Assembly: GCF_000183135.1 (NCBI RefSeq)
Contig: NC_014734.1
Span: forward strand, 1,922,001 to 1,986,000
Direction of reading: 5' to 3'
Length of the DNA stretch: 64,000 nucleotides
Source: Paludibacter propionicigenes WB4
GTDB lineage: Bacteria; Bacteroidota; Bacteroidia; Bacteroidales; Paludibacteraceae
The notes under the pieces are model-generated. The model made no database searches and had not been told where the DNA came from. It was given only the letters and a program-made list of their open reading frames with translations. Both the position numbers and the translations under genes were made by a program. This document shows, one piece after another, positions 48,599 through 56,915 of this stretch; the stretch's first letter is position 1, and each line of letters begins with the position of its first letter.

Positions 48599-49753
48599 TC
48601 ATTTAAAAACTCTGGAAGCAAAGTCGTGTAAGGATTTGCGCCAAACCTGCCATTCATGATCGCCGGGGAAAGATGCAAACTGAACTTTCAATCCGCTATT
48701 CTGAAATTTTTTCACTTCCTTTTGAGTAAATTCGAAACGGGGATCCTGCTCGCCAACAGAGACATAGAACAATTTCAGTTTTTGATTGAATTGCTGCGCC
48801 TTAGTGAGTAAACCGGGAATTTCTTTATCGGCATCAAACACCTTGCCTGTCGGGTTAGCAATTCCGCCAAAAATGCCCGAACTGAATACTCCCACAGAAG
48901 CAAAACAGTCAAGACTGCCCAATCCGGCATAAAAAGCCTGACCACCGCCCATAGAAAGACCGCAAAGTGCTCTGTTTTTTACATCGGCCAATGTTCGGAA
49001 ATTTTTATCGATGAATGGAACAACGTTATTCGTTATTTCTTCTTTGAATGCAGCCATTGCAGAGGAAGTATATCCGCCACTTGCAGATACATTTCCATTT
49101 GAAATGACAACAATCATCGGTTTTGCCTTGCCTTCGGCAATAAGATTATCGAGAATAATATCCGTTTTACCCTGTACAGCCCATCCACGTTCATCTTCTC
49201 CACCACCGTGCTGAATATATACCACAGGATATTTCAGCTTCGTATTGACATCGTATCCGGCAGGAGTATAGACAAACAACCGACGCCAGCTATTGGTCAC
49301 CTTCGAGAAATAGTATTTGGAACTTAGCGCTCCGTGCGGAACATCTTTTACATCATAAAAATCGACACCTTTTTCGGGAATATCGATGGCGCTGGACATA
49401 CGTCCTGTTCCGTAAAACGTTTCACTGGCCGGATCGACAACTTTAACGCCATCGATTACGAGCGAATAATAATGAAAACCGGGAACCTGAGGAGCGGTGG
49501 TAACCGTCCAGAAACCCTGATCGTCTTTGGTCATATCGTACAGTTTTCCCAAATCAATCTGCATCTTTTTAGCATCAGGGGCTTTGATCTTGAAAACAAC
49601 GCTCAGGTTGTCCAAAATACGCGGAAAACCATCCGGATTAATGTTGGTTACGGCAGGTTTGCCAACGACTGTTTGCTGGGCGCTGGCCACTCCTGAAAAC
49701 AGAAATGCAAATGCAAACAACGCCATCAGCGCTGAAATGTTTTTGTGTGTCAT
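48599..49753 (-). CDS. CE1 esterase 1 of 7 (feruloyl/acetyl esterase), Asp-type triad
   Basis: 384 residues. The signal peptide ends ASA before Gln26. An E-set/CBM48-like domain (about 40-120) precedes an alpha/beta hydrolase of esterase-D type (about 140-384). The triad is Ser267 (GLSMGG), Asp337 (VGEQD) and His366 (DHEW). The oxyanion-side motif is IQHGGGEDERGW. CE1 contains feruloyl and acetylxylan esterases; ferulate release is favoured by the E-set plus hydrolase layout known in Bacteroides xylan loci. With the next gene it forms one subgroup (VIDGVxVx[16 protein letters not shown], GEQD). It is the last gene of the tandem array. Confidence 0.92.
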   Translation of the reverse strand: MTHKNISALMALFAFAFLFSGVASAQQTVVGKPAVTNINPDGFPRILDNLSVVFKIKAPDAKKMQIDLGKLYDMTKDDQGFWTVTTAPQVPGFHYYSLVIDGVKVVDPASETFYGTGRMSSAIDIPEKGVDFYDVKDVPHGALSSKYYFSKVTNSWRRLFVYTPAGYDVNTKLKYPVVYIQHGGGEDERGWAVQGKTDIILDNLIAEGKAKPMIVVISNGNVSASGGYTSSAMAAFKEEITNNVVPFIDKNFRTLADVKNRALCGLSMGGGQAFYAGLGSLDCFASVGVFSSGIFGGIANPTGKVFDADKEIPGLLTKAQQFNQKLKLFYVSVGEQDPRFEFTQKEVKKFQNSGLKVQFASFPGDHEWQVWRKSLHDFASRVFK

Positions 49754-49765
49754 GGTACTGGTAAT

Positions 49766-50917
49766 TTATTTGAAAAGTTTGGGTACAAAATCATGCAGAG
49801 CCTTTCGCCAGACATGCCATTCGTGTGCACCCGGGAAATAGTTATATTGCAGTTTCAATCCCTTTTCTTTAAATGTTTCAATGGTCTTCTTCGTGTATTC
49901 GTACGAATGATCCTGCTCTCCACTGGAGATATAGAGCAATTTCAATTGAGTATTAAATTTTTCGGGATGGGTAAAGATGCCGGGAATTTGTTTTTCGGCA
50001 TCAAAAATATTGCCGTTTGTTCCACGAAAGGCGCTCGAACTAAAAGCACCGACCCAGGCAAATTTATCCGGATTCAGCATACCGATCCGGAAAGAGGTAC
50101 CGCCACCCATTGAAAGTCCCGCAATGGCGCGATGTTCGCGATCATTCGCAATCCGATAGTTTTGGTTCACAAACGGGATAATCACGTCGACCAGTTCGTC
50201 TTTGAAAAGATCCATGAAGTGGTTGGTAGATTCGGTATTGTAACCGGCTCCTATGTCACGAATAACATACTCGTTGGTTGTAACAACAATCATCGGGATT
50301 GCTTGCTTTTGGGCAATCAGGTTATCCATAATAATATCCAAATGACCCTGTTTCACCCATCCTGTTTCATCTTCACCGGCACCATGTTGCAGATAGAGCA
50401 CCGGGTATTTTTTTGTCGGGTTTTGTTCGTACCCGGGAGGGAGATAGACAAAAATTCTACGCCACGAGTTGGTTTTGGTGGAGAAATAGCGTTTGCTCTG
50501 AACCGTTCCGTGAGGCACATCCTTGATGAGATGAAAATCGACTCCCGCTTCAGGAATTTCGATACCGCTCGCCTCGCGGCTCATGCCGAAAAAAGTTTCG
50601 CTGGCAGGATCGGCAACCGCAACGCCATCGATCACTAAAGAGTAGTAGTGAAAGCCGGGAACCTGAGGAGCCGTAGTAACAGTCCAGAAACCATCACTTC
50701 CCTTTTCCATGTCATATTTCTTACCCAAATCAAGCTGCACCTTCTGGGCTTCGGGCGCTTTGATACGAAACGTAACCCGCAGGTCGGGCAAAATACGCGG
50801 ATATCCGGCACCGGTAATATTGGTTACTGCCGGCGTCGAATTATCAGATTGCTGTCCGAAGCAGGCAAAGGTAGCCTGCAACAAGACAACAAAAACTAGT
50901 AAAAGTGTTTTTCTCAT
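49766..50917 (-). CDS. CE1 esterase 2 of 7, Asp-type triad
   Basis: 383 residues, secreted (signal ends CFG before Gln22). E-set domain at about 35-115; hydrolase domain with Ser269 (GLSMGG), Asp336 (SGEQD) and His365 (AHEW). It is nearest to esterase 1, sharing [19 protein letters not shown] and NSWRR stretches at protein level and long similar runs of DNA. It is 12 bases upstream of esterase 1 and 8 bases downstream of esterase 3. By eye its DNA is richer in G+C than esterases 5-7. Expected to cleave ferulate or acetate esters on arabinoxylan fragments; chemical specificity cannot be told apart by reading. Confidence 0.92.
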
Positions 50918-55768: not shown

Positions 55769-55793
55769 GATAATAATTTATAATATAGTTATT

Positions 55794-56915
55794 TTACTTG
55801 AAAAGAAGCGGAGCAAGTTCTTTCAAACTGCGACGCCATGTAAGAAACTCATGCGCTGTATTTTCTGAAACAAAAGATACTGCATTATAACCAGCAGCTT
55901 TCAAATCTACTGCAGCTTTCTTCACTCCATCAGGATTTTCGCGGCTACCGCAACTCATAAAAATAAGTTTTGCCTGAGATTTATCCTTAATTTCAGCCGG
56001 TGTATAAGTTCCGCCGCTTAATAATGCATAATACGAGAATACTTCAGGACGAGCAAGCGTAATTGAGTGAGTTTCCATACCACCCATTGAAAGACCTGCC
56101 ATAGCACGACTATCCTTTGCTGCAATTGTGCGGAAATTAGCATCAACATAAGGTATAAGTTCATCTACAAGAACTGTTTGGAAAGCATTATAGTTGAAAC
56201 TTCTTATACCTCCTGGTTTAGTATCATTTGTCATTCCGTAAGTCATCACAATGATAAACGGTTTGATTTTACCTTCAGCAATCAGGTTATCCATAATCAA
56301 ATTGGCATGACCCTGAACACTCCAAGCTGTTTCATCTTCACCCCAACCATGTTGCAAATAGAGTACAGGATATTTGGTCTTTGCATTTTTGTCGTATCCG
56401 GCAGGAGTATACACAAATGCGCGACGTGAAGTGTTGGTGCTCTTAGAAGGGAAAAGAATCTGCTGAACATTACCGTGAGGAACGTCTTTCAATGCATAGA
56501 AATCTTTGTCGTGAGCAGGAATTTCGATACCGCTTTCCCAACGGGTAGAACCGTAGAAATTTAATGCACCCGGATCGTTGAATACACCACCGTCAATAGT
56601 TAAATGATAGTAGTGAAAACCTTCATCCATTGGACCAGCAGTAGTTCCCATCCATGATCCATCATCAGCTTTGGTAAGTGGAGTACCACCCTTTGCGCCA
56701 CCAAGTCCGAGACTTACTACAATGCTTTGAGCCTGTGGAGCTACTACACGAAAACGTGCATATCCCTGTGAGTTTACTTTCGGGTATTCCTGACCCGGTT
56801 GATTACATGTAGAAGGCTTGAAGTCTTCAATGATAGCAGGTTGATTTGTTTGTGCAAAACAAAATCCGCTCGTTGTCAAAATTGCAAAAATTGCAACTAA
56901 TAATTTGTTTTTCAT
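55794..56915 (-). CDS. CE1 esterase 7 of 7, Glu-type triad
   Basis: 373 residues, the shortest and the first transcribed of the array. The signal ends CFA before Gln22. E-set domain (about 45-125) has a Gly-rich variant loop (LGLGGAKGG). Hydrolase has Ser276 (GLSMGG), Glu326 (CGSREN) and His355 (TAHEF). The core motif [12 protein letters not shown] is intact. It has no long low-complexity loop. Upstream is a 90-base AT-rich gap before the GH43-CBM6 gene, in which I saw no terminator and only a poor -7-like sequence, so read-through from upstream is likely. Confidence 0.92.

What the first reader, a model, noticed from the sequence alone, without database searches (positions are those of the whole stretch)
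48599..56915. Seven tandem CE1 esterase genes in one operon
Seven complete, secreted E-set + CE1 hydrolases follow one another with gaps of 8-25 bases. Each keeps a Ser and His of the triad. Xylan loci of Bacteroidota often carry one or a few feruloyl esterases; seven consecutive paralogues is exceptional from what I know. Their divergence suggests a division of labour among ferulate, diferulate, p-coumarate, acetate and position-specific esters on cereal-type arabinoxylan.
Basis: partly seen in the sequence, partly recalled or inferred. Interest (0 to 1): 0.75.

Follow-up and report, generated by a model that had tools for sequence, protein, structure and literature searches.

The report
Seven-gene xylan esterase array
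A bacterium of the Bacteroidota carries seven adjacent but long-diverged esterase genes that probably strip different acid decorations off grass-type xylan; the run is real and unusually long, but close relatives carry runs of seven and eight and shorter runs are widespread.

Summary
In detail: seven complete CBM48-CE1 esterase genes lie head to tail on the minus strand (48599-56915), 8-25 bases apart, each with a full Ser-His-Asp/Glu triad. They are not a recent amplification. In a 76-row tree they fall into six old subfamilies that also hold the genes at the same positions in a sister genus; an AU test rejects the seven as one clade (p 8.5e-5). The order A>B>C>D>D>E>F is identical in two genomes of that genus, with runs of seven and eight, and dN/dS is far below 1. 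So "exceptional" is only partly right: seven is at the long end of a graded range; 1 of 391 other sampled genomes of the phylum has a run of five or more. E1 and E3 have solved kin (wtsFae1A feruloyl esterase; Bi1039 acetylxylan esterase, whose loop E3 keeps). E2 and E4-E7 fall in clades without any of the four solved enzymes used; E6 and E7 have Asp as acid. The surrounding 37 kb cluster (GH10, GH43, GH67, GH115, GH95, more esterases, no SusD found) points to complex feruloylated glucuronoarabinoxylan. Division of labour is likely but untested.

The parts
55794..56915 (-). E1, CBM48-CE1, clade A (wtsFae1A type): predicted feruloyl esterase
   Evidence: PF00756; best solved relative 6RZO, 468.6 bits; clade with 6RZO, support 100/100; 603.6 bits to the esterase part of NF041944, under that model's whole-protein cut-off of 1200
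54554..55768 (-). E2, CBM48-CE1, clade B; Pro/Ala/Gly-rich insert in the loop beside the active site
   Evidence: 6RZO 439 bits but a separate clade without any of the four solved enzymes; nearest tree row is G810_1
53371..54531 (-). E3, CBM48-CE1, clade C (Bi1039 type): predicted acetylxylan esterase
   Evidence: 6NE9 583.4 bits; clade with 6NE9 100/99; keeps the NYP loop with Tyr295-Pro296
52119..53354 (-). E4, CBM48-CE1, clade D, specificity unknown; Pro/Ala/Gly-rich insert
50926..52110 (-). E5, CBM48-CE1, clade D (64% identical to E4 by BLASTP), specificity unknown
49766..50917 (-). E6, CBM48-CE1, clade E, Asp as catalytic acid; among the tree rows this clade holds only the window, G683 and G685
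48599..49753 (-). E7, CBM48-CE1, clade F, Asp as catalytic acid, specificity unknown
57006..58331 (-). GH43-CBM6 gene directly upstream; syntenic in G683, G685 and G690
   Evidence: Pfam; 74-75% identical there
58372..60006 (-). GH27-like alpha-galactosidase; syntenic in G683 and, cut by the contig stretch, in G690
60034..61605 (-). GH43 with C-terminal ConA-like domain; syntenic in G683
46508..48568 (-). GH67 alpha-glucuronidase directly downstream
45431..46333 (-). SASA-domain acetylesterase
42757..45309 (-). GH115 alpha-glucuronidase
40826..42760 (-). second SASA-domain acetylesterase
39314..40807 (-). MFS sugar transporter
38157..39284 (-). GH10 xylanase, last gene of the minus-strand run
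34121..38047 (+). hybrid two-component system regulator (HTCS)

Best explanation
An old, maintained array of seven CBM48-CE1 serine esterases works as the de-esterification unit of a cluster that degrades complex feruloylated glucuronoarabinoxylan. The seven belong to six anciently separated subfamilies (A, B, C, D twice, E, F). Each is probably exported to the periplasm; the CBM48-like domain helps form the active-site cleft, and Ser-His-Glu (Asp in E6 and E7) hydrolyses an ester by the usual acyl-enzyme route. E1 most likely removes ferulate and E3 backbone acetate. E2 and E4-E7 most likely remove the same acids from differently substituted sugars (for example ferulate on arabinose carrying xylose or galactose) or other acyl groups. 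Shown here: genes, triads, order, subfamilies, constraint, context. Inferred: location, co-expression, all specificities.
For: Seven intact genes with triads. Careful tree: every window gene shares a subfamily clade with the genes at the same position in G683 and G685 (for E2 the nearest row is G810_1, for E3 the branching with G697 is unresolved); seven as one clade rejected, delta lnL 2468, p-AU 8.5e-5. Same order A>B>C>D>D>E>F in the window, G683 and G685. dN/dS (NG86) 0.02-0.08 in 21 of 21 comparisons among window, G683 and G685, and 0.02-0.18 in 5 of G683 with G690. Within-array identity 40-57%, except E4/E5 68%. E1 and E3 in supported clades with solved 6RZO and 6NE9; E3 keeps the Tyr-Pro loop by which Pereira et al. 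explain poor ferulate binding, with reservations of their own. Cluster of GH10, GH43, GH67, GH115 with GH95, GH8, BD-FAE and COesterase upstream and GH31 and GH97 nearby; GH31 and GH95 enzymes of B. ovatus PUL-XylL act on corn xylan and its GH97 on an alpha-galactoside (PMC4491172, passages).
Against: No activity is known for any of the seven. Characterised relatives overlap: all four esterases tested in B. intestinalis released acetate. One relative, the DmCE1B C-terminal domain, is nearly inactive on model substrates, so divergence need not mean a distinct known substrate. E4 and E5 are 64-68% identical and may be redundant. Four-fold-site mismatches from the window to G683 are lower for E5 (0.29) and E6 (0.39) than for the other five (0.47-0.62), so the array may not have descended wholly as one block. 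Congener G697 has only A>B>F>C, so the full set is dispensable in the genus. Only four solved enzymes were put in the tree; other characterised CE1 enzymes (wtsFae1B, DmCE1A, the DmCE1B N-terminal domain, Bi1038) were not.
Confidence: 0.62

Rival explanations
1. Dosage and breadth: the seven have broadly overlapping feruloyl/acetyl esterase activity, and the array mainly gives a large amount of enzyme robust to varied substrates.
For: Characterised relatives overlap (all four tested B. intestinalis esterases released acetate); E4/E5 are close; runs differ in content between genomes.
Against: Subfamilies stayed distinct and in order in two genera under strong constraint; active-site loops differ between clades; characterised members differ in preference.
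Confidence: 0.25
2. Recent tandem amplification of one esterase gene.
For: Head-to-tail arrangement; E4 and E5 share clade D, and clades E and F (E6, E7) are sisters.
Against: One-clade hypothesis rejected; orthologues of each position in another genus; within-array identity mostly 40-57%.
Confidence: 0.02
3. Some of the members in clades D, E and F act on something other than xylan feruloyl/acetyl esters, for example other acylated sugars or lignin-carbohydrate esters.
For: None of the four solved enzymes falls in clades B, D, E or F; a near-inactive relative exists; the cluster holds alpha-galactosidases and other enzymes.
Against: Position inside a xylan cluster, next to GH67/GH115 and GH43; same domain make-up and triad.
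Confidence: 0.11

Closest known systems
[quoted passage not shown] 2021, PMC7815789: outline, passages, sections 8, 12 part 1 of 2, and 13 seen)
   Same: Several CBM48-CE1 enzymes with GH43 and GH3 enzymes and an HTCS for complex arabinoxylan; E3 is of the Bi1039 type.
   Different: Five putative esterases there, three with CE1, not one uninterrupted CE1 run; it has a susC/susD gene, here no SusD was found; seven CE1 in a row here.
PUL 17 of Dysgonomonas mossii (Kmezik et al. 2021, PMC8040265: passages seen)
   Same: CBM48-CE1 enzymes with GH43, GH67 and GH115 for glucuronoarabinoxylan; the window's genome also has a CE1-CBM48-CE1 frame like DmCE1B at 3486170-3487969.
   Different: Two CE1 genes (one a CE1-CBM48-CE1 fusion) and one CE6 there.
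B. ovatus PUL-XylL (PMC4491172: passages seen)
   Same: GH10, GH43, GH67/GH115 with GH31, GH95 and GH97, matching corn xylan side chains.
   Different: The passages seen name one multicatalytic CE6-CE1 esterase (through PMC8040265) and no CE1 array.
Runs of 4-8 CBM48-CE1 genes in other Bacteroidota genomes (not described in the papers that my searches listed)
   Same: G685 (eight) and G683 (seven) share all six subfamilies and their order; Maribellus sediminis (six) shares A, C and F.
   Different: Runs found outside the window's family are shorter (at most six) and mix other subfamilies (B2, G, H, J, K).

Membership tests
Carbohydrate esterase family 1 (CE1) | PF00756 esterase domain of the alpha/beta-hydrolase fold | tested here: met
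   7 of 7, (by sequence; no structure was obtained)
Carbohydrate esterase family 1 (CE1) | Ser-His-Asp/Glu triad with GxSxG elbow | tested here: met
   7 of 7
Carbohydrate esterase family 1 (CE1) | esterase activity on xylan acyl groups | not testable with these tools
   no assay
CBM48-CE1 subgroup | N-terminal CBM48-like domain joined to CE1 as in 6RZO, 6NE9, 7B5V, 6MOU | tested here: met
   best phmmer stretches start at residues 8-39 and whole-sequence scores are 261-583 bits over these four enzymes; for E2 and E4, and for E5 with 6NE9, the best stretch stops at the low-complexity insert. Pfam itself reported only PF00756
Esterase genes-enriched PUL (definition in PMC7815789) | more than two esterase genes | tested here: met
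   seven CE1 plus two SASA in the window, COesterase and BD-FAE just upstream
Esterase genes-enriched PUL (definition in PMC7815789) | a polysaccharide-utilization locus with susC/susD | tested here: not met
   no SusD (PF07980) between genome positions 1896841 and 2196364; no SusC or SusD domain among the genes given to Pfam in the window and just upstream; SusC not searched genome-wide
Esterase genes-enriched PUL (definition in PMC7815789) | HTCS regulator | tested here: met
   34121-38047
Recent tandem gene amplification | copies closer to each other than to orthologues elsewhere | tested here: not met

The most novel reading that the evidence does not exclude
Clades B, D, E and F are esterase subfamilies with acyl or position specificities not yet described for CE1 (for instance ferulate on arabinose already carrying xylose and L-galactose, or diferulates). 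The array would then be a fixed kit whose order and membership have been kept since before two genera split, with E6/E7 (Asp acid) as a distinct enzyme type and the Pro/Ala/Gly-rich loops of E2 and E4 as specificity devices.
Probability: 0.3. Interest if true: 0.62.

Novelty: new variant of a known kind. Interest (0 to 1): 0.4.

Why it matters
How CE1 enzymes divide the removal of ferulate, coumarate, diferulate and acetate is not well understood. One operon-like array from one cell holds six ancient subfamilies, and five of its genes fall in clades without any of the four solved enzymes used here. That is a ready-made panel for linking sequence to specificity and for upgrading corn and grass fibre.

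Tried and rejected
Recent amplification: rejected. Uniqueness of seven in a row: rejected, G685 has eight and G683 seven. A broken GH43 at the window end (62891-63829): it is simply cut by the window edge and reads on to window-equivalent 64414. Wholesale recent horizontal transfer of the array: considered because window genes are closer to the sister genus than to congener G697 (E1 88% against 82%, while rpoB is 83% against 95%). But four-fold-site mismatches of E1-E4 and E7 to G683 (0.47-0.62) are like those of rpoB and pnp (0.54, 0.51), and those of the three upstream GH genes are higher (0.63-0.68), so descent since the genus split fits those five genes; E5 and E6 (0.29, 0.39) may have been exchanged later, and the G697 array is probably a different (xenologous or paralogous) copy. 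Bacteroidetes promoter consensus (recalled): 3 matches in the window, 3.81 expected by chance, none between the array and the gene upstream: uninformative.

Corrections: the first rpoB/pnp script read several loci on the wrong strand and gave false low identities for those pairs; one search repeats it with both strands, and only its values are used for rpoB and pnp. In one search the lines printed for L106, L107 and L122 are a fallback to the window and were not used.

Survey limits: searches scored only the 4-5 best candidates per genome, and searches drew samples. Rescoring covered 41 of 41 other phylum genomes with a match, 10 of 40 other family genomes (G025 was scored whole), 18 of 40 other order genomes (whose listing was cut) and, in family f37, 14 of the 18 genomes with three or more matches out of 143 with any. 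Runs were counted by hand from the listings. The samples overlap (for example L026 and G202, L015 and G690). Longer runs elsewhere are not excluded. Tree rows were chosen by hand (162, 76 of these); domains under 200 bits or not full length were dropped.

Literature: searches listed no paper whose title or abstract start tells of a seven-gene CE1 run; open-access library only, listings only except the three papers named in Closest known systems.
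Full report
OBSERVATION. Seven minus-strand ORFs of 373-411 aa fill 48599-56915 with gaps of 25, 22, 16, 8, 8 and 12 bases in transcription order. I call them E1 (55794) to E7 (48599). All seven hit PF00756 above its cut-off. In an alignment of 162 related domains, Ser and His of the triad are present in 162 of 162; the acid is Glu in 134 and Asp in 28, the latter including E6 and E7. The window lies at 1922001-1986000 of a single-contig genome of 3.69 Mb. Its order is probably Bacteroidales, by inference: a same-order genome, G058, has a contig of the same length (119276) as the named Bacteroidales contig JAQUTK010000006.1, and the two give matches of the same size and score.

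SETTING. Downstream follow GH67, a SASA esterase, GH115, another SASA esterase, an MFS sugar transporter and GH10; upstream are GH43-CBM6, a GH27-like enzyme, GH43, a TAXI-like binding protein and GH43. Beyond the window the same strand goes on with a COesterase, GH43, GH95, GH8, BD-FAE and a GH5-type enzyme up to window-equivalent position 74873, then pnp on the other strand. This run of about 37 kb thus has eleven esterase genes: seven CE1, two SASA, one COesterase, one BD-FAE. An HTCS regulator lies at 34121-38047; GH97, GH3, GH2, GH43, GH31, GH27-like and GH10 genes lie beyond it. No SusD was found between genome positions 1896841 and 2196364, so this is not a canonical PUL. In B. ovatus PUL-XylL, a GH31 enzyme releases xylose and a GH95 enzyme L-galactose from corn xylan, and a GH97 enzyme acts on an alpha-galactoside (PMC4491172, passages). 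The same families here point to complex, corn-like glucuronoarabinoxylan; that is inference from family names.

WHAT EACH GENE IS. Best solved relatives: E1 6RZO (468.6 bits); E2 6RZO (439.0); E3 6NE9 (583.4); E4 6MOU (371.8); E5 7B5V and 6MOU (334.3 and 330.0); E6 7B5V (376.9); E7 7B5V (383.0). In the careful tree (76 rows) only E1 (with 6RZO, 100/100) and E3 (with 6NE9, 100/99) share a subfamily clade with a solved enzyme. E2 is in clade B, E4 and E5 in clade D, E6 in clade E, E7 in clade F, none with any of the four solved enzymes; other characterised CE1 enzymes were not in the tree. E3 keeps the loop with Tyr295-Pro296 by which Pereira et al. explain poor ferulate binding of Bi1039, while noting that the order of this loop may come from captured solvent or crystal packing; Bi1039 is the better acetylxylan esterase and releases very little ferulate. 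So E3 is predicted to be an acetylxylan esterase. E2 and E4 carry Pro/Ala/Gly/Gln-rich stretches (the loop region is 59 and 63 residues long, against 25 in Bi1039) in a loop whose counterpart is near the active site in Bi1033; orthologues in G683 and G685 keep them, while Confluentibacter of clade D has only 30 residues there.

OLD, NOT RECENT. Every window gene shares a subfamily clade with the genes at the same position in G683 and G685 of the sister genus. Within these clades E1, E4, E5, E6 and E7 are nearest to that genus, E2 is nearest to G810 of another family (82% identical, join 81/95), and the branching of E3 with G697 is unresolved. Forcing the seven into one clade costs 2468 log-likelihood units (p-AU 8.5e-5). 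The order A>B>C>D>D>E>F is the same in the window, G683 and G685, and in G683 the three GH genes upstream of the array are also in the same order (72-79% identical). dN/dS by NG86 is 0.02-0.08 in 21 of 21 comparisons among window, G683 and G685, and 0.02-0.18 in 5 comparisons of G683 with G690; several dS values are near saturation. Four-fold-site mismatch to G683 is 0.47-0.62 for E1-E4 and E7, against 0.54 for rpoB and 0.51 for pnp; E5 (0.29) and E6 (0.39) are lower, which may mean later exchange of that piece. Congener G697, 95% identical in rpoB and pnp, has a shorter array A>B>F>C whose genes are only 73-86% identical to the window's, so it is probably a separate copy.

HOW RARE. Run = adjacent CE1 genes on one strand less than 450 bases apart. 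Phylum sample: 41 of 391 other genomes have a match at 1e-75 or better; after rescoring, 5 of 391 have a run of three or more (G249 five, G308 four, G245, G202 and G435 three) and none seven (loci). Own family: of 357 others, G685 has eight, G683 seven, G690 five plus a fragment at a contig start, G697 four and G025 four with the first cut by the contig start; 10 of the 40 with a match were rescored. Own order: of 392 others (18 of 40 with a match rescored), G888 has five, G1062 and G1120 four. Named loci: longest runs in 79 loci are 1 (48), 2 (14), 3 (9), 4 (3), 5 (3) and 6 (2); the sixes are L015, cut at the contig start and by its coordinates the same locus as G690, and Maribellus sediminis. 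Family f37, unnamed, whose arrays resemble that of Spirosoma panaciterrae: 143 of 222 genomes match at 1e-100. In 14 of the 18 with three or more such matches, strict runs are five (2 genomes), four (7), three (4) and two (1); 13 of 14 hold five or six CE1 genes in under 10 kb, 11 of these 13 interrupted by one gap of 1.3-1.7 kb (counted by hand). So seven is at the long end, not a different kind of thing.

MECHANISM. Established for the family (recalled): Ser attacks the ester, His and Glu/Asp assist, an acyl-enzyme forms and is hydrolysed. Mutagenesis supports the triad in Bi1039 (each of three alanine variants lost pNP-acetate activity) and in Bi1033 (Ser and His needed, about 30% left without the predicted Glu). 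The CBM48-like domain packs against the CE1 domain towards the active site in the solved relatives (passages). Inferred here: periplasmic location (no lipobox in 7 of 7), joint transcription, and complementary specificities.

VERDICT. Real, accurately described, and at the extreme of a known kind.

Noticed in passing
window 61808-62869: A TAXI/NMT1-like solute-binding protein (PF16868; TIGR02122 76.4 bits, below its cut-off of 84.35) with a signal-peptide-like start sits inside the xylan cluster.
   Followed up: partly
window 2025-4085: A 686 aa protein with no Pfam or NCBIfam match next to GH31 and GH10 genes.
   Followed up: partly
window 54554-55768 and 52119-53354: Pro/Ala/Gly/Gln-rich inserts beside the active site in E2 and E4, of variable length among orthologues but kept in the sister genus.
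   Followed up: partly
G000:C1:3486170-3487969 (L105): The window's genome also has a CE1-CBM48-CE1 frame of 641 aa, like DmCE1B of Dysgonomonas mossii.
   Followed up: partly
L110 2045-7448 and L109 16423-17610 (G685): G685 has 15 matches to the CE1 model in its genome, including a second run of four genes about 64 kb from its array of eight on the same contig.
   Followed up: no
G1244, G1245 and other genomes of family f37: A recurrent gap of 1.3-1.7 kb, perhaps one other gene, interrupts the CE1 clusters at the same place.
   Followed up: no
G1245:C38:242940-243962: One CE1 copy in an array of family f37 carries an in-frame TAG.
   Followed up: no
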